A stretch of DNA of 64,000 nucleotides from Liolophura sinensis (Eukaryota; Mollusca; Polyplacophora; Chitonida; Chitonidae): positions 25,183,953-25,247,952 of the forward strand of contig NC_088307.1 of assembly GCF_032854445.1 (NCBI RefSeq), given 5' to 3'. This document shows positions 13,601 to 30,410 of this stretch, piece after piece. Within the stretch, counting starts at the first letter, position 1, and each line of letters opens with the position of its first letter. The translations under genes and the position numbers were made by a program. A model generated the notes under the pieces. It was given only the letters and a program-made list of their open reading frames with translations. It was not told the origin of the DNA and did no database searches.

Positions 13601-16600
13601 AATTTGACTGAATCAGATTCTATTCATCTCAGAAAGATGTTTTAAGGTTTGGCTGGGAGGGGAGGGCCTCTGTGGCCAGGGGGTGTAGAATTACGCCAAT
13701 GCAGCGTAATGACCCAGAAGCCTCTGTCGTATAAGTTACACATTCTCTTAAAACACCAATCAGATAATAAAAATATAAAGGGTTTGGTTGGAACATACGT
13801 GTAGGATGATAATTTTGTGGAAAAATATGATTAAGCCTTAAAAAATGTATTTTGTCTTGCAAATTTTTGGGGGCAAATGCAATATTTTGCGTTCATTTAA
13901 AAAAATCCAGCTTAAACACATGTATTGTTTTTGTCTCCAGCTCTTCACAGTGCCTGTTACCATGGTCACATCCGACTGGTGCAGTTTTTGCTGGAGAACG
14001 GTGCCGACATGAACCTGGTAGCTTCTGTCAGCGATCAGAATGGCGGCAGTGAGAAGAAGGAAGAGCAAACTCCTCTCATGTGGGCGTATGAGCGAGGTCA
14101 GAGGTCAATCTTGAACAAGTGCTCTATATGAAGTATATCTGTGCAATAAAACTTTTTTTGAAGATTTAAAAAAAAAAACACTGTAAGCTTATGGAGTATT
14201 GGCGCAATGTGTCGTCACCATTGCAAGAGAATATACAGTGTAGCTGACGGCCATATTGGAAGTATATTAGCATTTGCTGGTATAGCAGTATTTCTCCAAC
14301 AAGAGCTATCGAAAGTAGGTCCAATATTATAAGCTGTAACCAAAAAATCTGAACTTCTCCTGCATCACAGAAGATACTCCCTTTTAATTGGTCACTTTGG
14401 GAATGCATATATTTCTGAGCTCATCAACTGATGTCATCATATTTCTGTTACCCAGGTTATCGTAATTCATTCGGCTTTCAAAATAATGGCGTCACTGAAG
14501 TGATCAGCCAATACAACGGCCTTCTGTGCTTTGTTTGTTTCAAGGTTATTCACTGACTGGATAACATGTAGCCAGCATGAAGGTTACTAGCCTGAAATAT
14601 ATACATATTTTGTCAGTGACCATTTATTTACTTGACCGGTGTTTTATGTTGTACTCAAGAATATTTCACTTATACCAAGGAGGCCAGCATTATGGTGGGT
14701 GGGAGCAGGGTAGAGCCTGGGGGAAACCCATGACCACCCACAGGTTGCTGCCAGACCTTCCCACAGCCGGAGAGGAATCTAGCATAAGCTGGACCAATGT
14801 AACTAATCATGTCATATTATATTTATGTGTATTATGAAAATACGACATTGACAGGCTTTGAAAATGTACTTGGGATAATATATCAAAAAGTGATAAATTG
14901 TACAACTGTTGTAGCTTACAGTTTTTGTTTTCACACTTACATGTGAAGACAGGGAACTCTCCTGCTCTCACTCCTTGAGGGGCCTTGCCGACCATAAGCT
15001 GAAGATGACGCTTGTGTTTCCATTCTGTAGACATCATTTGTCTGTCCCTAATAATTGTACAGTGTTTATATCTGTATGTTACATGTGGGAAAGCTCATCA
15101 GTGACATGCTAAAGGTCTGTGGTTTTCCATGGGCACGCCAGTTTCCTCTTCCCATGAAAGCGACTGCCATCATATAATTTTAATGTTCCTAGTTACGCCG
15201 TTATACAACAATCAAATAAATAAATAAATAAATCATGTTTCCCTGACGATGTCTGGACCTATTATTTGCAGGTCACGACTCCATAGTGACGTTGTTGAAA
15301 CATCACAAGCGCCCGCAGGATGAGTCCGCATGCGGGGACTACACCCAGCCAGGGGGTGACGGCTCGTACGTCTCTGTCCCCTCCCCACTTGGCAAGCTAC
15401 GCAGCATCACAAGAGGTATGGAAAAGTTTCAAGCAAGCATGTAGTCATGGCGTTGTTGCAAGGACAATATGCTAATGCAGGTCTTCTTTCAGTGAGTTGT
15501 AAACGGTGTGACTTCTCTAAAAAAATCAGCCCACGTAACTGGTCATTAGGTTACAGACAGAATCTTTGCCAATAGACCAGTAGTCTACAGGTAATTGCGA
15601 GGTGTGAAAGTCAAATGGTCAGTTGGGGCTTTGGTCCTCTTTATGCTTCTGTTACTTGTCCATCATTGTGCTCGGAGTAATTTGGTATTGACATTATGAA
15701 TGTCACTTCTGACCGCAGAGAAGATTGACGTCTTACAGCTGCGTGCCAGCCTCCCGCACCAGTTCCACCTTCTCATCACAGACATGGAATTCCAGGAGGT
15801 CATTGGCACTGGATCCTTTGGCAAAGTCTTCAAGGGAAAATGTAGAGGAAAGACAGTGGCTATTAAACAGTGAGTTTGATTATATTCCTCGATAATTGTG
15901 TTAAGTTGGAGCGAAGGTGCTCTCAGCTTTTCTACTGGATCTTTTGAAGTTTTGATTTATTTATTTGATTTGTGTTTTATGCCGTACTCAAGAATATTTC
16001 ACTTATGCGACGGCGGTCAGCATTATGGTGGGAGGAAACTGGGCAGAGTCCGGGGGGAAACCCACGACCATGTGCGAACAGCCGGAGAGGAAACCAGCAT
16101 AAGCTGGACTTGAACTCAGAGCGACCGCATTGGTGAAAGGCTTATGGGTCATTATGCTGCGCTAGCGCGCTAACCAACTGAGCCGCTTGAAGTTTTGAGG
16201 TTTGTGACATTAAATTACTGTAAAAAATCATGTTTTTTATTATGTTTCAGCACCAAAAGTAATATATTAAAAAAAAAACAAGCAAACAAACAAATAAAAT
16301 AGCTATCTTCTGTTTAACTAGGTACAGGGCCAGCTCCTTTGGTGCGAAGTCAGATGTGGACATGTTTTGTAGAGAAGTGTCCATCCTGGCCAAACTCAAC
16401 AGTTCTTATGTTATAAACTTTGTGGGGGCGTGTTTGGATGATCCTAGTGTGAGTTCATTTACTGATTTTATTTGATGAAGGTGTTGTTTGTTTTATAACA
16501 TACAGTCTTATTCCCTGATCCACTAAAGGTTATGACACCAGAATAACCCTCATGCCTTAACCTTTCCACATGTGAACTTTCAGTGTAATTTATGCGCATT

Positions 16601-19600
16601 GAAGTTTTGATTTTGAGAACAAAACCACAATTGTTGGATTGGCCGGTTTCAGGGCTTTACAAGAAGTATTATTTTATCAGTCAGCACAGAAAAATGCCTT
16701 CAGAATGTGCTTGAATAAACACCTTGAAAGCATGTGAAAAGGTTGAAGAATGACATTACGTTAAAGTTATAGTATTAAATGTTTTGTCAGTTCAATTTTT
16801 GATAAATATATATCATTTTGGCTGTCATCATAATATTGAGGAAAATTTTTGTTGTTAATTTACTACCATTGAGTATGATGATGGTGAAATTCAGTATTGA
16901 ATTAGTGAGGAACTCTCAAAACCCGCATAAAGTACCAATCAGATAATGAAATGATGAAATCTGTTTCAGCAATTTGCCATAGTCACACAGTTCGTGTCAG
17001 GTGGATCGCTCTTCAGTCTTCTTCATGAACAAAAGAGGTAATTAACCTGTAATATCTTATCTAACATGTTTGCTTTCGAAAAGCTTACAAATATACATCA
17101 AATTTCATTGAAATGTGTTATTTAGAGCACCTTAAGGCACTGTTCCGGCTATACGTGGAAAGGTCTAGCAGCAACCTGCAGATGGTCGTGGGTTTTCTCC
17201 TGGCTCTGCCCGGTTTCCTCCCACCATAATGCTGGCTGCCATCGTATAAGTGAAATATTATTGAGTACGGCGTAAAACACCAATCAAATAAATAAATGAA
17301 TTAAGGCAATGATAAATAAACCCAAACTGCATGACAAAGTTATACATTTTGCATGATTATGACAGTTATATTGATCTTAGAAAGGTGTGTTGAGATTTGT
17401 TTGGAAATTGAGGTGATATCCTATCGCTTTTCAGCACCAAAAGTGATATTTTATGACAATAATTGCATCTAAAGACTCACTTTTTGGGGCGAATCTTGAA
17501 GTCTTTTATTATACAGTATAATGAAATGGGCCTCAGAGTAACACGCGAGCATAGCGCAATGACCCAGGAGCCTCTCACCAATGCGGTCGCTGTGAGTTTT
17601 AGTCCAGCTCATGCTGGCTTCCTCTCCGGCCAAATGTGGGAAGCAACCTGTGGATGGTCGTGGGTTTTCCCCGGCCTCTGTCCGGTTTCCTACCACCAAA
17701 ATGCTGGCCGTTGTCGTATAAGTGAAATATTCTTGAGTACAGCGTAAAACACCAATAAAATAAATAAATGCGTATTATATAGTATATATATCGTAGTACC
17801 AAAGGCTACTCAGAGGCACAGGTAGTGATTATCAGACCCTTGACCAATTTCTTAATTAAATGAGTGAGTGAGTGAGTGCTTGGGGTTTAACGTCGTACTC
17901 AACAATTTTTCAGTCATATGACGACGAAGGAATCATTTGGGTGCATGCACGTGTAATGTGCCTCCTTGTTGCAGGACGGATTTCCACCGCTCTTTTATTT
18001 AGTGCTGCATCACTGAGACGACTTACCGAAGGCAAGTAAGCCGCCCCGCCCGAGCCATTATACTGATACGGGTCAACCAGTCGTTGCACTATCCCCTTCA
18101 TGCTGAACGCCAAGCGAGGAAGTTACAACTTCCTCTTTTAAAGTCTTAGGTGTGACTCGACCAAGGATTGATCCTGGATCTACCGGTCCCGAAGCGGACG
18201 CTCTACCAACTGTGCTATCCGGGCCGGTCTTAATTAAATGAAGAAGTAAATTTAAACTTACATGTATTCTGTTGGTTTTAGTTTGATGTGAAAACTTTTT
18301 TGGATCTGTTGTTAGAAGCATGATTTGATTTAGTTTGCTGCATGTCACGCCACTCTATAAATAAATCAGCAGGAAAAATGTTTGGAAAATCATTAGTTTC
18401 TAATGCCATTGTCTGCCAACTGCTGAACATTAATGCATTGGTTTGACAGGCTGATTGACTTACAGTCCAAGCTAACGATCGCCTACGACGTGGCCAAAGG
18501 CATGGAATATCTTCACAATCTACCTCAGCCAATTATACACAGAGATCTCAACAGCCACAACATCCTGTTGGATGAAAACGGACACGCCCTGGTGGCTGAC
18601 TTTGGAGGTTTGTTCTATTTGTGTAAGATATCCTAGCCTGCAGTGTGTTAGTACTTAAATTTCCAAATTTTGTCCTCACTTTTTTAAATGGGTCCTTTTT
18701 TGAAAATGTCCTTGTCTAATAAGCAGAAAGTTCTGATTACATGTACATTGTTGATAATTTGTAATGAAAATCCCAGAAGATATAGCTGCATGTATACATG
18801 TTAATATAGGTTGCCTGGTTGTGGACCAATTTGTATGCGTATGTCAGCAACCTGTGGATGATCGTGGGTTTCCCTTGGGCTCTGCGTGCTTTCCTCCCAG
18901 CATAATGATGGCCATGGTTGTATAAGTGAAATATTCTTGAGTATGGCGTAAAATACTAACCGGATAAATAAATAAATAAACTATAGATGGAGCCTGTATT
19001 AAAGGAGAAGAAAACTTTAAAAAATGACACAATAGGCTGAAAAGAGCACATTTTTTTTCTATCTGGTGGTGCGTGTTGCATAATTTGGCGATTTTTCCTC
19101 ACTGTACATGTAAAGACTGAAAATGGCAAAGCTGGCATAAATCACTTAGTCCATCGCGTCCTCCATCTTCAGCACCCTGTAATTAATTCTGGGGGTGTGT
19201 TTCCACTCATCCAATGGGAGTAGTTAAAACTGCCGGCTTGTTCGTGTAAACTGGGAACCCACATCCAACATTCCTGATCGTCAAGTTGTAAACGAACTGT
19301 ACCGTTCGCTACCTTTTGGGAAGAAGAGTTCCACCAGAAATGCACTTTGGCTGTTTCCGACGGCAATTCTCCTAACACACAAGACTTCAGGACTAGTTCT
19401 TAGGCAAAATGGAGTGGCCCACAGTGGATTTTGGCGCTGACTTTATTTATAATTTATCAATTTGAAGTACATATTAGATTTTTTTTTATGGCACGCACCT
19501 GCGAGGAAATGCATAATCTATTTGATGGTATTTGATTGACATTTAAATTTTCTTCTCCTTTAAAGAAACCAGTATTAAGTACTCACTGTAAATTGTATAT

Positions 19601-22600
19601 TTTGTCAGAATCCCGCTTTCTGAGGTCTACGGAGGAAGATAACATGACCAAACAACCTGGGGTGAGTGACGTGAAAAATTCTCAGTTATTACCCTAAATG
19701 GGGATAAATTTCATCCATGACTTAGCTGCCCCTTTTTCTTGATTTTTAGAGTTCTGTTGATTTTAGAAAGGTGTTTTGAGGTTGGGAACATGGGATGATA
19801 TGCGAATAAAAAATTTTAAGTTTGAGTACGAAAAGTAATATTTTGTGACACTCATGCCTCTGAAAATGTACTTTTGTGGGCGAAATTTTAGCTCATTTAG
19901 GGTAGACATCTTATTTATTGATTAACTTTTATGTTATTTATTTATGTACTTATATACTTAGTTATTTGTTTATGTGTATATTTATTTGATTGGAGTTTTA
20001 TGCCATACTGAAGAATATTTCACTAATACAACAGCAGCTAGAGTTATTGTTGGGAGAAAACTGAACAGGGCGGCTGGGAAACGACCAGAGAGAAAGCCAG
20101 CATGAATTGTGTAAACTCACAGTGACTGCATTAGAGAGACCCCTGGGTCAGGCTTCCATTCTACTGTGGCATGCCAACAACTAGGCCTTGGAGGCTCCCT
20201 CTACTGGTAGAGAAGTGTTGCTGTTTGCCAAGTTGGCTCAGATGCTATGGCATGTGTTCTGTTGTGCCATTGTGCTAGCATCAGACAACTTGTAGGAACT
20301 TCAAAACATAATCGGAAAATCTCATGGTTCTACCATTATAGCATATATGTTAAGCTGGCTCTCCATGAGGTTTGGGTTCAAACCCAATCTTGGACAGAGG
20401 ATTTGTAAATTCCCCGGCTGTCAATGCATGTGGTGGCCTTGGTAACAATATAAATCAATCAGTGAGCCGTGTTTGGCCGTTCGATCGTTTTGTCTTTCAG
20501 CAGTATGTTATGCATGTCTAAATGTCACAAGTGGGAAGGTTTGCCAGTAAATTGCCAAAGGTCAGTGGTTTACTCAGTGCACTCCAGTTGCCTCCACCTA
20601 TAAAACTGAATGCCGTCTCTTAAGTGAAAGTCTTGAGTATTGCAGTAAGGAAACAATCAAACAAGTAAATAAATATATCAAGCTTGCTCATGTGATTTTG
20701 CACACAAATGTTTTTTGAGCAATGCATTTAAAAAACGATGAAATAAATAATTAAATCAGTGGATAATAAAATGGTTCCAAAAATTGCAGAACCTCCGCTG
20801 GATGGCTCCTGAGATCTTTACCCAGTGCACCAAGTATAGCATCAAGGCAGATGTGTTTAGCTACTCTCTGTGTCTGTGGGAACTTCTGGCGGGAGAACTG
20901 CCCTTTGCTCATCTCAAGCCAGGTGAGTCAGTGTAGCATCAAGGTGGATGTGTTTAGTTACTCCCTGTGACCGTGGGAACTTCTGGTGGGAGAACTGCCC
21001 TTTGCTGGTCTGTAACCAGGTGAGTCAGTGTAGCCACAAGGTGGATGTGTTTAGCTACTCCCTGTGACTGTGGGAACTTCTGTTGGGAGAACTGCCCTTT
21101 GCTCATATCAAGCCAGGTGAGTCAGTGTAGCGTCAAGGTGGATGTGTTTAACTACTCCCTGTGTCTGTAGGAACTTCTGGCGGGAGAACTGCCCTTTGTT
21201 CATCTCAAACCAGGTGAGTCAGTGTAGCGTCAAGGTGGATGTGTTTAACTACTCCCTGTGTCTGTGGGAACTTCTGGTGGGAGAACTGCCCCTTGCCGGT
21301 CTCAAACCAGGAATCAGTGTAGCGTCAAGGTGGATGTGTTTAACTACTCCCTGTGTCTTTGGGAACTTCTGGTGGGAGAACTGCCCTTTGCTGGTCTCAA
21401 ACCAGGAGTCAGTGTAGCGTCAAGGTGGATGTGTTTAGCTACTCCCTGTGTCTGTGGGAACTTCTGGTGGGAGAACTGCCGTTTGCTGGTCTCAAACCAG
21501 GTGATTCAGTGTAGCCACAAGGTGGATGTGTTTAGCTACTCCCTGTGACTGGGAACTTCTGGTGGGAGAACTGCCCTTTGCTGGTCTCAAACCAGGTGAT
21601 TCAGTGTAGCATCAAGGTGGATGTGTTTGGCTACTCCCTGTGTCTGTGGGAACTTCTGGCGGGAGAACTTGCCTTTGCTGGTCTCAAACCAGGTGAGTCA
21701 GTATAGCATCAAGGTGGATGTGCTTAGCTACTCCCTGTGACTGTGGGAACTTCTGGTGGGAGAACTTGCCTTTGCTGGTCTCAAACCAGGTGAGTCAGTG
21801 TAGCATCAAGGTGGATGTGTTTAGCTACTCCCTGTGTCTGTGGGAACTTCTGGCAGGAGAACTTGCCTTTGCTGGTCTCAAACCAGGTGAGTCAGTATAG
21901 CATCAAGGTGGATGTGCTTAGCTACTCCCTGTGACTGTGGGAACTTCTGGTGGGAGAACTTGCCTTTGCTGGTCTCAAACCAGGTGAGTCAGTGTAGCAT
22001 CAAGGTGGATGTGTTTAGCTACTCCCTGTGTCTGTGGGAACTTCTGGCGGGAGAACTTGCCTTAGCTGGTCTCAAACCAGGTGAGTCAGTGTAGCCACAA
22101 GGTGGATGTGTTTAACTACTCCCTGTGTCTGTGGGAACTTCTGGCGGGAGAACTGCCCTTTGCTGGTCTCAAACCAGGTGAGTCAGTGTAGCATCAAGGT
22201 GGATGTGCTTAGTTACTCCCTGTGACTGTGGGAACTTCTGGTGGGAGAATTGCCCTTTGCCGGTCTCAAACCAGGTGAGTCAGTGTAGCATCAAGGTGGA
22301 TGTGTTTAACTACTCCCTGTGTCTGTAGGAACTTGTGGTTGGAGAACTGCCCTTTGCTGGTCTCAAACCAGGTGATTCAGTGTAGCATCAAGGTGGATGT
22401 GTTTAGTTACTCCCTGTGTCTGTAGGAACTTCTGGTGGGAGAACTGCCCTTTGCTGGTCTCAAACCAGGTGTCAGTGTAGCATCAAGGTGGATATGCTTA
22501 GCTACTCCCTGTGTCTGTGGGAACTTCTGTTGGGAGAACTGCCCTTTGTTCATCTCAAACCAGGTGAGTCAGTGTAGCGTCAAGGTGGATGTGTTTAGCT

Positions 22601-25600
22601 ACTCCCTGTGTCTTTGGGAACTTCTGGTGGGTGAACTGCTCTTTGCCGGTCTCAAACCAGGTGTCAGTGTAGCATCAAGGTGGATATGCTTAGCTACTCC
22701 CTGTGTCTGTGGGAACTTCTGTTGGGAGAACTGCCCTTTGTTCATCTCAAACCAGGTGAGTCAGTGTAGCATCAAGGTGGATGTGTTTAGCTACTCCCTG
22801 TGTCTGTGGGAACTTCTGTTGGGAGAACTGGCCTTTGCTGGTCTCAAACCAGGTGAGTCAGTGTAGCATCAAGGTGGATGTGTTTAGCTACTCCCTTTGT
22901 CTGTGGGAACTTCTGGTGGGAGAACTGCCCTTTGCTGGTCGCAAACCAGGTGTCATTGTAGCGTCAAGGTGGATGTGTTTAGCTACTCCCTGTGTCTGTG
23001 GGAACTTCTGGCGGGAGAACTGCCCTTTGCTCATCTCAAACCAGGTGAGTCAGTATAGCATCAAGGCCGATGTGTTTAGCTACTCTCTGTGTCTGTGGGA
23101 ACTTCTGGTGGGAGAACTGCCCTTTGCTCATCTCAAGCCAGGTGAGTCAGTGTAGCATCAGGGTGGATGTGTTTAGCTACTCCCTGTGTCTGTGGGAACT
23201 TCTGTTGGGAGAACTGCCCTTTGCTCATCTCAAACCAGGTGAGTCAGTGTAGCGTCAAGGTGGATGTGTTTAACTACTCCCTGTGTCTTTGGGAACTTCT
23301 GGTGGGAGAACTGCCCTTTGCTGGTCTCAAACCAGGTGAGTCAGTATAGCATCAAGGTGGATGTGTTTAGCTACTCCCTGTGACTGTGGGAACTTCTGTT
23401 GGGAGAACTGCCCTTTGTTCATCTCAAACCAGGTGAGTCAGTGTAGCATCAGGGTGGATGTGTTTAACTACTCCCTGTGACTGTGGGAACTTCTGTTGGG
23501 AGAACTGCCCTTTGTTCATCTCAAACCAGGTGAGTCAGTGTAGCATCAGGGTGGATGTGTTTAGCTACTCCCTGTGTCTGTGGGAACTTCTGGCGGGAGA
23601 ACTGCCCTTTGCTCATCTCAATCCAGGTGAGTCAGGGTAGCATCAGGGTGGATGTGTTTAACTACTCCCTGTGTCTGTAGGAACTTCTGGTTGGAGAACT
23701 GCCCTTTGCTGGTCTCAAACCAGGTGAGTCAGTGTAGCATCAAGGTGGATGTGTTTAGCTACTCCCTGTGACTGTGGGAACTTCTGGTGGGTGAACTGCC
23801 CTTTGCTGGTCTCAAACCAGGTGAGTCAGTGTAGCATCAAGGTGGATGTGTTTAGCTACTCCCTGTGACTGTGGGAACTTTTGGTGGGAGAACTGGCCTT
23901 TGCTGGTCTCAAACCAGGTGAGTCAGTATAGCAGCAGCTAATAAGAGAAAAGGCTTAAGTTTATTAGAAAGATATTTTTACGGAATGTGTGATAACACAG
24001 ATCAAATCAGGTGTTAACCAGGGTGTGAACTAGTCCGGTGAATTTCAGAGAAATTGATTGAGAATCCCACACCCGCAGTCGTGTAAGTGAAAAATTCTTG
24101 AATACAGGATAAAACACCAAGTGATCAAATACAGGTACCTGTACTTAGTTATGCTTTCCTGTATTTACTGTTGTTATTTTGTTGCATTACAGCTGCAGCC
24201 GCTGCTGAGATGGCGTACCACACAACGCGACCTCCGATCGCCATAACCTTTCCCAAACCTCTGCTTGCTCTGCTACAGAAAGGTTGGAATGCCAACCCAC
24301 AGGTAAGATGAGGAATCACCTGTTATTTTAGTTCCTAATATTGATCGAGACAAGGAACGGTGTAATGTGATCCAACAAAGAGGTTATCATGGAATTGTTA
24401 CTTATGTTGCAGTTGTTGAAATTTGCTCTTTGAGGAGTAAGGAAGTGTTGCAGAATACTGCAGTTGTTGAAACCTGTTCTTTTAGGAGTAAGGTAGTATG
24501 GCAGAATACTGCATTTGTTGACACCAGCTCTTTTAGGCGTATGGAAGTGTTGCAGAATACTGCAGTTGTTGAAACATGTACTGTTAGGAGTATGGAATTG
24601 TGGCAGAATACTGCAGTTGTTGAAACCTGCTCTTTGAGGAGTATGGGAATGTGGCAGAATACTGCAGTTGTTGACACCAGCTCTTTTAGGAGTATGGAAA
24701 TGTGGTAGAATACTGCAGTTGTTGAACATGCACTGTTAGGAGTATGGAATTGTGGCAGAATACTGCAGTTGGTGACACCTGCTCTTTGAGGAGTATGGCA
24801 ATGTGGCAGAATACTGCATTTGTTGAATCCTCCTATTTTAGGAGTACGGAAGTGTGGCAGAATACTGCAGTTGTTGACACCTGCTCTTGAGGAGTCTGGA
24901 AGTGTGGTAGAATACTGTTGACACCTGCTCTTTCAGGAGTGTGGAAGTGTTGCAGAATAGTGCAGTTGTTGAAACGTGTACTGTTAGGAGTATGGAAGTG
25001 TGGCAGAATACTGCAGTTGTTGACACCCGCTCTTGAGGAGTATGGAAGTGTTGTAGAATACTGTTGACACCTGCTCTTTCAGGAGTGTGGAAGTGTTGCA
25101 GAATAGTGCAGTTGTTGAAACGTGTTCTGTTAGGAGTATGGAATTGTGGCAGAATACTGCAGTTGTTGACACCTGCTCTTGAGGAGTATGGAAGTGTTGT
25201 AGAATACTGCAGTTGTTGACACCAGCTCTTTTAGGAGTATGGAAATGTTGCAGAATACTGCAGTTGTTGAAACATGTACTGTTAGGAGTATGGAATTGTG
25301 GCAGAATACTGCAGTTGTTGACACCTGCTCTTTGAGGAGTATGGCAATGTGGCAGAATACTGCATTTGTTGAATCCTCCTATTTTAGGAGTATGGAAGTG
25401 TGGCAGAATACTGCAGTTGTTGACACCCGCTCTTGAGGAGTATGGAAGTGTGGTAGAATACTGTTGACACCTGCTCTTTCAGGAGTATGGAAGTGTTGCA
25501 GAATAGTGCAGTTGTTGAAACATGTACTGTTAGGAGTATGGAAATGTGGTAGAATACTGCAGTTGTTGAAACATGCACTGTTAGGAGTATGGTTGCAGAA

Positions 25601-27974
25601 TATTGCATTTGTTGAAACCTGAACAAAAAAAAGAAAAAAAATGAAAAATAATAAAAGTTGATTTAGAGTACAAAAAGTTGCAGTTTGATATCAGCCTTTG
25701 CCCTGTGAGATTTTATGTTGAAATCCATTCAGGTCTGCGGGCATTCAAAGTTTTCAACCAGGAATGATAAGCCTAGATATGGTTCAGTCGACCCACTAAT
25801 TCTGTCCAAAACATGGATAACATGTCTGATCTCTGTCTAATTTCAGGAGCGTCCAGAGTTCAGAGAAATTGTCCCTATTTTGGAGGAGTGTCGGCACTCA
25901 CAGGCTGTGGCGTTGCTAAGCAACAGTATAAGCACTCAGTCCGAGTTTAACAGTGGGCTTAGTGTGCTGACTGAGCCTGTGCTGGAAGAAGAGGACGGGA
26001 GGTCAACTCCCCCCCTCACGGGTATGGTGACTGCCATGAGGACACGCTGGGAAATGGAAGCCTCCAGAAATAAGTACGCTCACATTTATGTAAACGACAA
26101 CAACAGTAACTAAATAACAACATAACAACAACAACAACCGTGAGAATGGTCACATTTCTGGCCTGTTTAACCAACAACAGCAACAACGACAATAAAAACA
26201 ACAATTTATGTATTGTATTTCACATAAGGCTAACTTTCTTCAAGTGACACATTTCATTTAATTATAATCCACTTTATGGGCCACGAGAGTTTTTTTTTTT
26301 GTGAAGTTTGAACAATTTCCTATCAGAAGAACATAACCAGTGAAGAAATACATTTGTTTCACCACCCATTTCACCAAAATCCACCTGGATTTAAATATTT
26401 TGTCTTTTTTGAGATGGTCGTAAACTTTGCAAGGAAACATTTCTACATGTACATGTCCAGATGTAAATGAAATGGTATTGAGGAAGATATTATGAGTGAA
26501 ATAAATTCAAGTTTTATGTTGACAAGTAGTGAGAGGAATATTGTTTATAACTACCGGTATTAAGATATTAAACTGGTATTAATTCCTCTGTACATTTACA
26601 GTACAAATCAAAGATTTTACAGTACATTTACAGTACAAATCAAAGATTTTACAGTACTTTACAGTACATTTATGACTTGTTTCAGTGCTGTGTCGTCTGA
26701 AGAATTTCGTCGCAGGTTTCCTTATGCACAGTTGGATAAAAATGGTTTGTACATTTTGCATGCAGATTTTCAACAAAAAAATCCCACATAACTGTATTAC
26801 CATTGATTGACAGGTAGGCTTCAAATTGAAAAGTGGAATGTTAGACAACATGCTGAAACTGTTTGGGATTTGGTATGCTGTTTAGAAAATTTTTATTTAG
26901 GATGAACTGCATTTGTTTGGGATGATTTTGTATTCAAATGACAGGGTGAAATATTAGACTTTTGGGCTTGTGAAACGAATATTTTATGCCTGTTTCAAAA
27001 TTCTCTTTGAAAGCGAATATTAAAACAGAAATTTCTGTTCATATCTTTTGTGTGGAAAGCATTCTGTTATCAATGCTTTAAAGTCCAATGAGTGTGAAAT
27101 CAAAATGTGTTTTCTTCTGTAATATGTGTGACCTGTCCACAACTATTTTTTTTAAAGTTTGAAAATTTTGTCATATGATTTTTTGAGATGTAGTTACAAT
27201 AATCATCAGACAAATTCCATCAACCCCATAATTTTATTAAGTATAATTAACTTATTACCTAAGTATGTGTACAGGAAGTGTTTGAGCTCGGACTTCTTCC
27301 ACCCATAGCTCATGCTGGCTTCCTCTCTGGCTGTAGGTGGGAAGGTCTGTCAGCAACCTGAGGATGGTTGTGGGTTTCGCCTGGGCTCTGCTTGTTTTCG
27401 ATCCACCATAATGCTGGCCGCCGTCATATAAGTGAAATATTCTTGAGTACGGCGTAAAACACCAATCAAATAAATAAATACATCTTCCACCCCTAAACGT
27501 TACCCTAGTCCTATAACTGACAACTTCTTGAGTACAGCATTAACCACCAATCAGATAAATAAATAAATAAATAAATGAATAAATGTTTATGCTAGTGTTC
27601 TGAGTGATGTCTCCAAAAGTATTTGCTAAATACTCTCCAGGTTTACAGTTACACGATGAGATATAAGAATGTGTCACGGCCGTACATTGGAAGGTCTGAC
27701 AGCAACCTGTTTCTCTTGGGCTCTGCCCAGTTTGCTCCCTCCATAATGTTGGCTGCTATCATATAAGTGAAATATTCTGGAATATGGTGTAAAACGCCAA
27801 TCAAATAAATAGATAAGATAATTACAATTTGCCTTCCCATTGCCAGGTTATGTGACCGACCCACTCAGCACCCTGGGGATTCCTGTCTCTCTGCCCCTCC
27901 CCCCACAAGCCTCTCTCAGCACAGAAGATGAGAGCCACCTGCTGGTCACTAGGCTCCACCACCTGCAACTGTAG
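4618..27974 (+). CDS. TNNI3K: TNNI3K-like ankyrin-repeat / TKL-type protein kinase, complete, 22 coding exons
   Basis: Coding exons: 4618-4657, 5355-5463, 6146-6249, 6664-6767, 7110-7220, 8966-9064, 10634-10778, 11434-11572, 12380-12484, 12915-13009, 13941-14096, 15272-15415, 15719-15869, 16322-16448, 16970-17037, 18450-18607, 19609-19661, 20790-20922, 24193-24302, 25847-26073, 26686-26744, 27847-27974. All joins are GT-AG and keep frame; they total 2565 nt (854 aa; human about 835). The start [12 protein letters not shown] matches the vertebrate N-terminus nearly residue for residue. Residues ~60-430 are ankyrin repeats (e.g. [32 protein letters not shown]). The kinase domain spans ~465-725: glycine loop GTGSFG 480-485, VAIK Lys500, alpha-C Glu519, HRDLNSHN with Asp598, DFG 616-618, APE 642-644, so it should be active. 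In vertebrates the protein is a cardiac, troponin-I-interacting dual-specificity kinase; its role here is unknown. The C-terminal tail (~726-854) is weakly conserved apart from DKNGYVTDP, near the vertebrate DKYGYVSDP. The exon 20 donor (aa|GTACGC) is the least certain join. Confidence 0.95.
4708..4895. mobile_element. MITE-like element, family 2 (TNNI3K intron 1)
   Basis: Inverted ends: AATTCTTCAACCTTTTCAA on the left and TTGAAAAGGTTGAAGATTTA on the right. Length is ~188 bp with no coding capacity. Relatives lie at 7765-7972, 39700-39775 (partial), 42810-43012 and 43825-44050. Confidence 0.75.
7503..7700 (-). mobile_element. SINE family A (TNNI3K intron 5)
   Basis: Reverse-orientation body CAAGAATATTTCACTTGTAT..CAGCATTATGGGGAGAGGAAA, tail side on the left; the tRNA-like head is degraded. 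Confidence 0.75.
7765..7972. mobile_element. MITE-like element, family 2
   Basis: Starts AAATCTTCAACTTTTTCAAC and ends AAAATCTGAAGATTTACAG. The internal AATTTGTACAGTTTAATGAA is shared with the 4708 copy. The right terminus is partly eroded. Confidence 0.65.
8055..8717. repeat. ~74-bp minisatellite, 9 copies (TNNI3K intron 5)
   Basis: Unit GTGATTCACCGTGTTGTTAG..GGTATGTGAGAATGAATT. Copies differ by a few substitutions. The array ends ~250 bp before exon 6. Confidence 0.93.
10090..10131. promoter_or_regulatory. Pair of perfect CRE-type TGACGTCA sites in intron 6
   Basis: TGACGTCA occurs at 10090-10097 and again at 10124-10131, 34 bp apart. This palindrome is the canonical binding site of CREB/ATF-type bZIP factors. 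Function in this intron is inference only. Confidence 0.3.
11215..11370 (+). mobile_element. SINE family B fragment (TNNI3K intron 7)
   Basis: Body motif GTTATTTGCCAAAGGGCAGT, then TCCACCCTAAAACTGGA, as in the copies at 15075 and 20355. Confidence 0.55.
11865..12025 (+). mobile_element. SINE family A, 3' two-thirds (intron 8)
   Basis: CAGCAACCTGCGGATGGTCG, CATAATGCTGGCC and the terminal ACACCAAATCAAAT are present; the tRNA-like head is lost. Confidence 0.8.
13680..13775 (+). mobile_element. SINE family A with an internal deletion
   Basis: The head (GCAGCGTAATGACCCAGAAG) is joined directly to the 3' end (GTCGTATAAGT..AAAACACCAATCAGATAA); about 150 bp of body is absent. Confidence 0.65.
14625..14800 (-). 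mobile_element. SINE family A (intron 11)
   Basis: Contains CAAGAATATTTCACTTATAC, AGCATTATGGTGGGTGGGAG and AGCATAAGCTGGA. The tRNA-like head beyond 14800 is missing. Confidence 0.8.
15075..15235 (+). mobile_element. SINE family B (intron 11)
   Basis: GTTACATGTGGGAAAGCTCA, TCAGTGACATGCTAAAGGTC, and a tail ATCAAATAAATAAATAAATA. The tail resembles that of family A although the body differs. Confidence 0.65.
15950..16195 (-). mobile_element. SINE family A, full length (intron 13)
   Basis: Runs from tail TTTATTTATTTGATT (left) to the complete tRNA-like head ending CGCGCTAACCAACTGAGC. On the minus strand the A-box-like GCTCAGTTGGTTAGCGCGCT and B-box GAGTTCAAGTCC are intact. It serves as the reference copy for the family. 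Confidence 0.88.
16540..16762. mobile_element. MITE-like element, family 3 (intron 14)
   Basis: Left end CCTTAACCTTTCCACATGTG and right end CATGTGAAAAGGTTGAAGAA are inverted relatives. The core AATGCCTTCAGAATGTGCTT recurs at 54285-54480, and a decayed relative is at 40905-41190. Confidence 0.65.
17140..17300 (+). mobile_element. SINE family A, head lost (intron 15)
   Basis: AGCAACCTGCAGATGGTCGT through GTACGGCGTAAAACACCAAT and an AAATAAATAAATG tail. Confidence 0.82.
17345..17510. mobile_element. MITE-like element, family 1, partial (intron 15)
   Basis: Shares CTTAGAAAGGTGTGTTGAG and CAGCACCAAAAGTGATATTT with the fuller copies at 19691 and 31544; both termini are eroded. Confidence 0.5.
17545..17772 (+). 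mobile_element. SINE family A, near full length (intron 15)
   Basis: Head AGCGCAATGACCCAGGAGCC, body CAACCTGTGGATGGTCGTGG and tail ACACCAATAAAATAAATAAA. Confidence 0.85.
17851..18241 (-). mobile_element. tRNA-derived SINE family C with exact target-site duplication (intron 15)
   Basis: Flanked by identical 13-bp direct repeats CTTAATTAAATGA (17851-17863 and 18229-18241). On the minus strand it starts with a tRNA-like head (A-box region GATAGCACAGTTGGTAGAGC, B-box-like GGTAGATCCAGGATCAATCC). It ends in a (TCAC)n tail, which is the GAGTGAGTGAGTGAG on the plus strand. Clean duplications indicate a recent LINE-dependent insertion. It is not a functional tRNA gene: the cloverleaf 3' half is replaced by SINE body. 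Confidence 0.88.
18840..18985 (+). mobile_element. SINE family A, head lost (intron 16)
   Basis: CAGCAACCTGTGGATGATCG, CATAATGATGGCC, and the tail CGGATAAATAAATAAATAAA. Confidence 0.78.
19691..19903. mobile_element. MITE-like element, family 1 (intron 17)
   Basis: The left end ACCCTAAATGGGGATAAATT and right end CGAAATTTTAGCTCATTTAG plus GGT form imperfect terminal inverted repeats of the consensus ACCCTAAATGACCTAAAATT. The internal GATTTTAGAAAGGTGTTTTG is shared with 31544-31771, 31929-32147 and 52850-53046. Confidence 0.72.
19975..20190 (-). mobile_element. SINE family A, diverged (intron 17)
   Basis: TATTTATTTGATTGGAGTTT then AAGAATATTTCACTAATACA; the tRNA-like part near 20120-20190 is only weakly recognisable. 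Confidence 0.65.
20355..20670 (+). mobile_element. SINE family B, longest copy (intron 17)
   Basis: Begins with a B-box-bearing head (GGGTTCAAACCCAATCTTGG), continues GGATTTGTAAATTCCCC and AGTAAATTGCCAAAGGTCAG, and ends near AACAATCAAACAAGTAAATA. Separate heads of the same type lie at ~42395-42500 and ~1280-1320. Confidence 0.6.
20838..23931 (+). repeat. 32-copy ~97-bp minisatellite derived from TNNI3K exon 18 and its splice donor
   Basis: Copy 1 is the 3' end of the functional exon 18 plus the first intron bases. Each later unit repeats the exon part coding [16 protein letters not shown] and GELPFAxLKP, then CCAGGTGAGTCAGTGTAG. The core GGAACTTCT recurs at about 20879, 20975, 21072 and so on to 23872, giving 32 units at a mean spacing of 96.5 bp. 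The upstream half of the exon ([10 protein letters not shown]) is not repeated. Many copies carry TGA or TAG inside the former reading frame, and unit length varies by 1-3 bp, so the array is not coding. Most copies share differences from the exon (GTGGAT for GCAGAT, GGTCTCAAACC for CATCTCAAGCC), showing homogenisation within the array. Almost every unit keeps a consensus 5' splice site. It fills most of intron 18. Confidence 0.95.
24405..25620. repeat. ~51-bp minisatellite with a 146-bp higher-order period (TNNI3K intron 19)
   Basis: Unit GTTGACACCTGCTCTT..AGGAGTATGGAAGTGTGGCA then GAATACTGCA, about 24 copies, some shortened by ~7 bp. Blocks of three units recur every 146 bp at ~24838, 24984 and 25130. 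Long ORFs across it on both strands are artefacts of the repeat. It ends ~230 bp before exon 20. Confidence 0.93.
26074..26113 (+). other. Alternative in-frame end of TNNI3K if intron 20 is retained
   Basis: Reading through the exon 20 donor adds 13 codons ([13 protein letters not shown]) and stops at TAA 26111-26113. This would give a ~806-aa isoform lacking the last ~61 residues. The splice to 26686 is preferred because it restores the conserved DKNGYVTDP tail. Confidence 0.35.
27295..27475 (+). mobile_element. SINE family A (TNNI3K intron 21)
   Basis: Starts within the tRNA-like head (AGCTCATGCTGGCTTCCTCT) and runs to GTACGGCGTAAAACACCAAT plus tail; the 5' end is truncated. A second 3'-end fragment lies at 27510-27580. 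Confidence 0.85.
27670..27815 (+). mobile_element. SINE family A fragment just upstream of the last TNNI3K exon
   Basis: CGTACATTGGAAGGTCTGAC through AACGCCAATCAAATAAATAG; it ends ~30 bp before the exon 22 acceptor. Confidence 0.78.
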
Positions 27975-28086
27975 GCAGTCTTCATCCAGCCACAGACTGT
28001 AACTTGTTGGCCGTCATGGCTCCAGCCACAGACTGTAGCTTGTCAGCCGTCATGGCTCCAACATGTGGTACGTTTAGGTTATGCAA

Positions 28087-28163
28087 ACATCTGACATGAG
28101 CCGTACATCTGACATGAGCCGTACATCTGACATGAGCCGTACATCTGACATGAGCCGTACATC
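28087..28163. repeat. 18-bp tandem repeat (ACATCTGACATGAGCCGT), ~4 copies
   Basis: Essentially identical copies within the probable TNNI3K 3'UTR. Confidence 0.9.
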
Positions 28164-28249
28164 ACACCAGTTTTCCTCTGTTAGCACGGCTTCCAAAATT
28201 AGGTCATGCAAAAGTACATGTATAATATGAACTATATGTTACAGCAACA

Positions 28250-28440
28250 TGGGTGCGTTCAGGGATTCGTTCATGAATACATTCATGGATGCGTTCATGG
28301 ATTTGTTCATGTATTCGTTCATGGATGCTTTTATGGATTTGTTCATGGATTTGTTCATGTATTCGTTCATGTATTCATTCATGGATGCGTTCATGGATTT
28401 GTTCATGGATGCGTTCATGGATTTGTTCGTGGATGTGTTC
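28250..28440. repeat. 12-bp TTCATGGATxxG repeat, ~16 copies
   Basis: Units alternate TTCATGGATGCG, TTCATGGATTTG and TTCATGTATTCG. Because the period is a multiple of three and lacks stops, all three forward frames stay open across it, giving spurious ORFs of 73-101 codons. Confidence 0.92.
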
Positions 28441-28599
28441 TTGCAAACTTCTGGATTTGCTGCGTATTAGGTTAAAACTACTCCAATATGGCTTCCAGAA
28501 TCAATCTGTCCAAGTGGAAAAACTGACCTACAAGAACATGTTTGTCAAAACAGAAAGTGAAGAAGCTGTGTTCAATAAAAGGAACATCTGTTGACTGGT

Positions 28600-30410
28600 A
28601 AAAGGTGTACTTCGCGACTGGCTGAATTTCTGTTGGTAAACATTGATTTGTAAAACAGTACTGCATAGAGCATAAGACACAAAAAGAGCAGTGTTGAAAG
28701 GCCGTTGTTGCTCTATGTATTGATTCAGCTCACAGCAGAGTACCAGATCAAACTGTGTAAACAGCCATGACCTTTACTCACCTCACTATAAATCAATCAG
28801 AAATCTCTCCTGTCTTGTTGCAGAGTGACAAGATTGTACTTGGGGTTTCACAAAAATGAAAAACATGTCAGATCAAGACAGAAACTTTGACAGAATGCAT
28901 TGTTGACATCAGGTTGGTCCATTTGACTGTTACCAAAAATATAACTGATGTTAAGGTGCTAGTTCTTAAATCTGTACACATGTGTAAGTTACCTGTGGAA
29001 GTTTGACAAATTTGGTTAATTTTGTTTTCACCTTGTAGTCCACTCTAAAAGAATATCTGGCCTACACACTTTAATTTTTATTAATTTTATTGTTTTTATT
29101 TCTTTTTGATATGTTATTCTTTTTGATAAAAAAAAAAAAACTTTAATAAGTAATTCTGCAGCAGATAAGAAAATTAAGTTAAAGGAAGTTAATATCATGA
29201 CCATTTAATATAGGGGACGCAAAGCTGTTCTAGGCTCTGCTAAAATGTTTGGGTGCGATGCTCGCCTAAAATCGGGCTTGTGATACTCACGTTGTTACTG
29301 GTGTGGTATCTTGAAGTACATGTGGTAAGGTCTTACATGAATAATTATATATTACGTATATAATGTATTAAAGTGGACTCTAACGAATGAGCCGTTCTCA
29401 TCTGGCTTGGTTACTCAGTTGGCAGAGCAGTGATAACCTTGCCCTTCAAATGTGTTTTCCATTCAAACTATAAACGCACAAAGAAGTTTTTACATTGTCT
29501 CCCTGAATATTAAGTAACATGTTTACTCAGCTGTTCGGGTAAGTATTCATTATCAGTTGTGACTTCAATTTCCATTTTGGAACAATAATCGAGGTGCTAT
29601 GGCAGCGTGAAGTCAGAGTGGTCAGCATCCACAGGTGACAGCACTCAGTACTGAGTGTGTCCACCATGAAGAGCATGAACTGTGATTACCCACACACTGC
29701 CATAGCTTCTGGATTATTGTCGTAAAATGTGAAAATCTTTGGGAAATTGAAGCCACAATGGCAATCTCGAGAATCGATATACAGACTGACCAAATGACGG
29801 TAGAACGCATCGTTTTCTTCTGTGACGTTGCAGTGCATGTGTACTTCATGTATGTTTTATGAGGACACATACACCGATAATTGTGACGTAATATAGGAAA
29901 GAACAAATGAGTTCACAGCTTTGAACCACCCTCATACAGATGGGAAGGAGTTTTACGAGTTCCCCATTAATGATGAATACTTACCCTTATTAACACATTA
30001 TTTAATTCTGAGAGAAAACAATATAAAATGGCTTCCTGCGTTTATATTTTTGATGAGTATAGTTCGCTTGATGGGTTAATTTGTCTGCTAAAATGGCGAC
30101 ATCAGCAAACATTAAGTATACCCATTGACAGATGTAGTATTTTGACATGCAGTTGCAGTTGTTTTGATTATTTTGATTGATTAAAATAAAATCGGTCAAT
30201 TTAAGGTAAGAGTTATTTAAAATATTCGAATGAGACAAGCCTCTTCAGTCAGCAATACCACTGGACATACATGTAGATCTGAGATCAGGTTTTAGTGATT
30301 TTTTTTATACCCCACCCCCAACAAAATTTTGTGGTATGTGACATTTACCTGAATCACTATGTCAAACATGATTGTGATTATGAAGTTTATGTCGTCAAAT
30401 TATGTGTAAT
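28600..30410. other. Intergenic, no feature recognised
   Basis: AT-rich; short ORFs only. Nothing here resembles an exon or a repeat family seen elsewhere in the window. Confidence 0.5.

What the first reader, a model, noticed from the sequence alone, without database searches (positions are those of the whole stretch)
20790..23931. A kinase exon end and its splice donor amplified 32-fold inside the following intron of TNNI3K
The first unit of a ~97-bp minisatellite is the 3' part of functional exon 18 ([20 protein letters not shown] region) plus GTGAGTCAGTGT. Thirty-one further copies follow, nearly all keeping a consensus 5' splice site. Many copies have stops in the old frame, so they are not alternative exons, but they form a long row of decoy donors beside a constitutive kinase exon. 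Each unit also has GTGTAG in front of the exon-like part, so an 83-nt cryptic exon (TAG|CATCAAG to CCAG|GTGAGT) is conceivable; it would shift frame and could act as a poison exon. I know of no described case of this form in TNNI3K.
Basis: partly seen in the sequence, partly recalled or inferred. Interest (0 to 1): 0.75.

Follow-up and report, generated by a model that had tools for sequence, protein, structure and literature searches.

The report
Exon-boundary minisatellite in chiton TNNI3K gene
In a chiton (a marine mollusc) the end of one kinase-gene exon and its splice signal have been copied into a row of 31 further repeats inside the next intron; this looks like a harmless by-product of repeat growth, of a kind known in amphioxus and, as a sample of other genes suggests, not rare in this animal.

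Summary
Exon 20790-20922 of a TNNI3K orthologue ends CCAG|GTGAGT. Its last 90 nt plus 7 intron nt form a 97-bp unit, present 32 times in tandem (20833-23924), filling about 92% of a 3,270-nt intron. The assembly matches the chiton Liolophura japonica. The kind is known: amphioxus "mirages", minisatellites spanning exon-intron boundaries. My searches showed no mollusc report.

It is not alone in this genome. By one rule, 7 of 135 scorable donor junctions sampled (0 of 1,350 donor shuffles) and 2 of 154 acceptor junctions lie in such arrays. Junctions are not favoured: 7/135 at the donor, 17/134 at +150. Birth by slippage between two AGTATAGCA copies is likely.

I see no convincing sign of a selected splicing role: donor columns are more variable than average, 14 of 32 units have stops, variant types look neutral; one permutation test weakly disagrees. 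Any later donor used from this exon gives HLKPGESV-stop. One oddity stays open: CCAG|GTGAGT also scores as a strong acceptor (97th percentile), a ratchet-site shape, but 0 of 32 units have a branch motif. Ordinary in mechanism; notable for taxon and frequency.

The parts
20790..20922 (+). TNNI3K kinase exon ([10 protein letters not shown]...PFAHLKP), 133 nt, phase-0 start, phase-1 end, ending CCAG|GTGAGT
20833..20929 (+). Unit 1 of the array: last 90 nt of the exon plus GTGAGTC
20930..23924 (+). 31 further exon-boundary units (of all 32 units, 26 are 97 nt and 6 are 95 nt)
23052..23148 (+). Unit 24, only 2.1% different from the exon copy (the other extra units 6.2-16.8%): probable exchange between exon and array
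23925..23933 (+). Partial copy AGTATAGCA after the last unit; the same 9 nt begin unit 1 in the exon (20833); probable slippage microhomology
20923..24192 (+). Host intron, 3,270 nt, about 92% array
24193..24302 (+). Next exon ([15 protein letters not shown]...NANPQ), donor CAG|GTAAGA
24408..25621 (+). Separate 51/146-bp intronic minisatellite in the following intron, between exon 24193-24302 and the exon starting at 25847

Best explanation
This is a 'mirage' minisatellite: a tandem array whose unit happens to span an exon-intron boundary. It probably began by slippage or unequal exchange between two copies of a 9-bp word (AGTATAGCA), one in the exon at 20833 and one in the intron that today stands right behind the last unit, and then grew by unequal exchange and conversion. 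The real exon remains the first unit, held by selection on the kinase. Splicing most likely keeps using the first donor, which pairs with the acceptor 133 nt upstream (exon definition), and the 31 copies leave with the intron. They have no selected function. Shown: the structure, the shared 9-mer, the neutral-looking variation of the copies, and the same structure at other genes in this genome. Inferred: the slippage step and the normal use of donor 1, since no RNA was available.
For: AGTATAGCA at 20833 in the exon and again directly after the last unit. Variant types among the 31 extra copies: 15 synonymous, 25 non-synonymous, 3 stop, against 13.1/28.5/1.4 expected without constraint; 14 of 32 units have stops. 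The donor 9-mer is among the more variable stretches (14th of 89 windows, gaps counted); 5 of the 6 units with a 2-nt deletion have it in the donor. Identical unit pairs 10/12 and 18/20, mosaic variants and exon-like unit 24 point to unequal exchange or conversion. Same process elsewhere: 7 of 135 scorable donor junctions (0 of 1,350 donor shuffles) and 2 of 154 acceptor junctions lie in boundary-spanning arrays; two more donor cases were found by eye (L054, L091). Junctions are not favoured over intron: donor 7/135 against 17/134 at +150 of the same loci (unpaired Fisher p 0.034). Amphioxus papers say that such repeats do not disturb normal mRNA (PMC3087553; PMC3902484; passages).
Against: No RNA data. 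A permutation of the variable columns gave weak signs of constraint on substitutions: with the five deleted donors set back to consensus, 28 of 31 copies have no substitution in the donor 9-mer against 18.4 +/- 5.3 expected (4.4% of permutations reach it), 31 of 31 keep AG|GT against 24.4 (9.4%), and the exon-end acceptor score is high (5.5%); counting indels, only 23 of 31 donors are intact. The array donor is a better U1 match than most donors of this gene.
Confidence: 0.8

Rival explanations
1. Decoy or poison array: the extra donors compete with the real one, or cryptic units are included, giving a truncated kinase or nonsense-mediated decay and so tuning TNNI3K output.
For: Use of a donor beyond the first from this exon gives HLKPGESV-stop, because the stop lies 12 nt past the exon end (shown for donors 2-4; the same sequence precedes every later donor). 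24 of 32 donors are full CAG|GTGAGT with U1 duplex -11.7 kcal/mol. Four units (4, 16, 17, 30) carry a stronger cryptic acceptor TGTAG|GAAC (about 98th percentile) that would make a 43-nt pseudo-exon; two of them (4, 30) also have an intact donor. Substitutions are weakly depleted in the donor.
Against: The 83-nt exon has weak acceptors. Donor columns, gaps counted, are more variable than average and variant types look neutral. Similar arrays at unrelated genes suggest no gene-specific role.
Confidence: 0.08
2. Ratchet or self-correcting splicing: every CCAG|GTGAGT can act as acceptor and donor, so the intron can be removed in steps, and a transcript that wrongly kept whole units can be spliced again from donor 1 to the end of the kept stretch, restoring the normal mRNA.
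For: CCAG|GT scores as an acceptor at the 97th percentile of the window's 3,760 plus-strand AGs on average (32 sites; the array's own AGs are among the 3,760). Of 67 surveyed exon ends with AG|GT only 1 reaches the array mean and none the exon copy. By sequence logic the zero-length step leaves the reading frame unchanged.
Against: 0 of 32 units have a yTnAy branch motif 15-50 nt upstream, against 6 of 10 real acceptors of the gene and a 50% base rate among AGs. Of the 7 rule-based donor-side arrays only 4 have AG|GT and the best of them is at the 90.3rd percentile, so it is not general. In flies the mechanism appears restricted to very long introns (PMC6110457, passages); this one is 3.27 kb. 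The acceptor matrix and branch motif were recalled, not derived here.
Confidence: 0.07
3. Assembly artefact: the array or its length is created by mis-assembly.
For: No reads were seen; the search of G000 found this sequence at one locus only, so there is no second allele to compare.
Against: The extra copies differ by 8.65% on average; HiFi mean read length of 8.3 kb exceeds the array; same kind at other loci.
Confidence: 0.03

Closest known systems
Amphioxus 'mirage' minisatellites (Adh3, globins BflGb6/BflGb9, troponin C, PGBD5; PMC3087553 and PMC3902484, passages)
   Same: Tandem units spanning an exon-intron boundary, one end copy being the real exon edge; many copies keep AG/GT signals; unit lengths of the same order (Adh3 10-72, PGBD5 60 and 108, globins 150-160 bp; 97 here)
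   Different: Mollusc, not cephalochordate; 32 copies against 3 and 6 reported for two BflGb6 haplotypes; length instability and normal splicing are reported there and were not testable here
Intron gain by tandem duplication of AGGT-containing exon segments (Rogers model; ATP2A1; fission yeast 24-bp repeats; PMC4974935, passages)
   Same: Tandem copies of a segment with AG|GT, so that removal of whole units restores the original sequence
   Different: Here an intron already stood at the boundary; no new intron is shown
Recursive splice sites (ratchet points) of Drosophila (PMC6110457, passages)
   Same: Juxtaposed acceptor and donor around AG/GT
   Different: Short intron, no branch motif found, sites multiplied by repetition, no junction reads

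Membership tests
Mirage minisatellite | Tandem repeat unit spans an exon-intron boundary | tested here: met
   90 exon nt + 7 intron nt, 32 units
Mirage minisatellite | One terminal copy is the real exon edge | tested here: met
   unit 1 lies in the TNNI3K exon
Mirage minisatellite | Does not disturb regular splicing | not testable with these tools
   no RNA data
Mirage minisatellite | Length instability between alleles | not testable with these tools
   one locus in G000, no second allele
Recursive splice site | Strong 3' splice-site motif juxtaposed to a 5' motif at AG/GT | tested here: met
   CCAG|GT at the 97th percentile on average; matrix recalled
Recursive splice site | Branch-site motif upstream | tested here: not met
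   0 of 32 units; motif recalled; 4 of 10 real acceptors of the gene lack it too
Recursive splice site | Ratchet junction reads | not testable with these tools
   no RNA data
Poison exon (83 nt) | Usable 3' splice site before the exon-like part | tested here: not met
   TAG|C mean 36th, best 58th percentile; by sequence score only, and the real acceptor of this exon is itself only at the 49th
Rogers-type new intron | Duplication creates a new intron position | not tested
   intron positions in relatives were not examined

The most novel reading that the evidence does not exclude
This exon can carry so long an array because its end is by chance also a strong acceptor: any transcript that keeps extra units can be spliced again from donor 1 to the last kept CCAG, restoring the normal mRNA. 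Such splicing-transparent boundaries would let mirages grow without cost, and across the chiton genome array length should rise with the acceptor score of the exon end.
Probability: 0.07. Interest if true: 0.75.

Novelty: new member of a known kind. Interest (0 to 1): 0.42.

Why it matters
In the papers I could search, exon-boundary minisatellites called mirages are described for amphioxus. Here they turn up in a mollusc, at about 1 in 20 of the scorable donor junctions sampled, and they look like the edge of a general tendency of this genome to grow intronic arrays. That makes chitons a good place to ask how splicing ignores dozens of perfect decoy donors beside a real one, and whether such arrays seed new introns.

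Tried and rejected
Coding role of the copies: rejected; neutral-looking variant types and 14 of 32 units with stops. 83-nt cryptic exon: weak acceptors. RNA structure: one two-unit stretch (22752-22945) folds no better than shuffles (z +1.09). Known RNA family: none at gathering score in 20000-25000. Minus-strand gene: the list of ORFs of 60 aa or more for 15000-30000 shows no minus-strand ORF inside 20833-23933. Amphioxus as the source: my first guess, rejected by a haemocyanin gene with 8 Haemocyan_bet_s domains (that the family is molluscan is recalled), the mitochondrial code and assembly statistics equal to Liolophura japonica. Kinase-family hits as an array detector: not sensitive; the array copies are not among the listed PF07714 matches, a list that was cut. 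Block duplication of units 1-9 as 24-32: not clearly supported; lag 23 is not special apart from the pair 1/24. Similarity falling with distance between units: weak, r 0.08, p 0.10. Donor bias of mirages over acceptors: 7/135 against 2/154, Fisher p 0.087, not established. L085 (array ends just before the likely real acceptor), L066 (5 exon nt only) and L076 were looked at and not counted. Origin-of-minisatellite search: listing only, nothing opened.
Full report
WHAT IS THERE. The window shows an exon at 20790-20922, an intron 20923-24192 and a further exon at 24193-24302. The exon encodes [44 protein letters not shown]. The peptide of exons 20790-, 24193- and 25847- joined (97 aa) hits PDB chains named TNNI3K (4yff) at E 7.4e-46, with TAK1 next at 2.5e-17. 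Ankyrin-repeat matches lie upstream on the same strand, as expected for TNNI3K (domain order recalled). Tandem Repeats Finder finds 32.1 copies of a 97-bp unit at 20833-23933; cut at CCAG there are 32 units, 26 of 97 nt and 6 of 95 nt. Unit 1 is the last 90 nt of the exon and GTGAGTC of the intron.

WHOSE GENOME. G000 has 609,464,459 bases in 632 contigs. Its contig lengths of 96,433,062, 37,343,639, 25,057,479 and 19,479,325 equal the longest scaffold, the N50 and scaffolds 12 and 13 of the chiton Liolophura japonica, which also has 632 scaffolds; the paper's total is 609,495,693, 31 kb more (PMC11068029, passages read). Eight Haemocyan_bet_s domains in one 11.4-kb cluster and a COX1 frame open in the invertebrate mitochondrial code, with AGA/AGG as Ser, ATA as Met and AAA as Lys in plausible places (judged from memory of COX1), agree with a mollusc. 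The paper reports HiFi reads of mean 8,347 bp at 14X, so single reads can span the array.

HOW IT AROSE. AGTATAGCA begins unit 1 in the exon and recurs directly after the last unit. This is what slippage or unequal exchange between short direct repeats would leave; that mechanism is general knowledge, not tested here. The 31 extra units differ by 8.65% on average and from the exon by 11.0%. Units 10 and 12, and 18 and 20, are identical; variants are mosaic; unit 24 differs from the exon by only 2.1%. Exchange among units, and at least once between exon and array, explains this.

IS IT SELECTED. Variant types match no constraint: 15 synonymous, 25 non-synonymous, 3 stop, against 13.1, 28.5, 1.4 expected. 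The donor 9-mer ranks 14th most variable of 89 windows, gaps counted; 24 of 32 units keep CAG|GTGAGT. A permutation of variable columns gives a weak opposite sign for substitutions alone, with the five deleted donors set back to consensus: 28 of 31 donors free of substitution (reached by 4.4% of permutations), 31 of 31 with AG|GT (9.4%), exon-end acceptor score (5.5%). But 5 of the 6 units with a 2-nt deletion have it in the donor. I read this as no convincing constraint.

WHAT SPLICING COULD DO. Use of a later donor from this exon gives HLKPGESV-stop. Better cryptic acceptors exist: TGTAG|GAAC in units 4, 16, 17 and 30 (43-nt pseudo-exon), and CCAG|GTGAGT itself, at the 97th percentile on average. 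The latter gives each intact unit the shape of a recursive splice site. It is an outlier: of 67 surveyed exon ends with AG|GT only 1 reaches the array mean and none the exon copy. Against its use, 0 of 32 units have a yTnAy motif 15-50 nt upstream, while 6 of 10 real acceptors of the gene do.

HOW COMMON. From family searches (PF07714, PF00063, PF00225, PF00005) I chose short matches by hand and cut 200 loci holding 204 exon matches: 61 kinase, 43 myosin, 82 kinesin, 18 ABC (total). A donor could be called at 135 and an acceptor at 154; the rest (69 and 50) were dropped. With a 36-nt probe centred on the junction and at least 2 more copies at 27/36 identity within 250 nt, 7 of 135 donor junctions are positive (L003, L035, L057, L071, L117, L132, L157) and 2 of 154 acceptor junctions (L081, L107); donor shuffles 0 of 1,350; acceptors were not shuffled. 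The rule was set after I had seen the first 100 loci. L054 and L091 are donor-side arrays that the rule missed because their donors scored low. Frequency is lower at the junction than inside introns of the same loci (donor 7/135 against 17/134 at +150, p 0.034; acceptor 2/154 against 7/153 at -150, p 0.10; unpaired tests). So arrays do not start preferentially at exon edges; they occur in introns at large and sometimes take in an edge. Of the 200 loci, 64 hold a tandem array of period 10 or more and at least 2.5 copies, and 15% of the window is tandem repeat (from the list).

WHAT IS KNOWN. [quoted passage not shown] The globin paper also proposes them as a source of new introns; the AGGT duplication model is summarised in PMC4974935 (passages). 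Searches for minisatellites at exon-intron boundaries, for mirages, and for chiton or mollusc cases listed no mollusc report that I recognised from title and start of abstract. Of the mollusc papers listed I opened PMC11545220 (passages: no 'minisatellite'); the octopus and bivalve papers were not opened. The main text of the L. japonica paper has no word beginning 'tandem'. The library lacks most subscription papers.

VERDICT. A real, striking but most likely functionless mirage minisatellite. New, as far as these searches go, are the taxon, the copy number and the measured frequency, plus an open question about the dual acceptor-donor site.

Noticed in passing
L003, L035, L054, L057, L071, L091, L117, L132, L157 (donor side); L081, L107 (acceptor side): Other exon-boundary tandem arrays at kinase, myosin and kinesin exons of the same genome
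   Followed up: partly
window 24408-25621: A second long minisatellite (51/146 bp) in the next TNNI3K intron; no exon overlap seen
   Followed up: no
G000:C99 (108,685 bp): Seven mitochondrial COX1 matches about 15.5 kb apart, one of them partial: a head-to-tail mitochondrial concatemer, probably an assembly product
   Followed up: no
G000:C8:37880506-37891931: Eight Haemocyan_bet_s domains in tandem on one strand: a haemocyanin gene
   Followed up: no
window 21124-21220, 22282-22378, 22379-22473, 23634-23730: Units 4, 16, 17 and 30 carry a TGG to TAG change that both stops the old frame and makes a strong-looking acceptor
   Followed up: partly
window 20770-20789: The real acceptor of the array-bearing exon is unusually poor in pyrimidines (49th percentile of AGs)
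   Followed up: no
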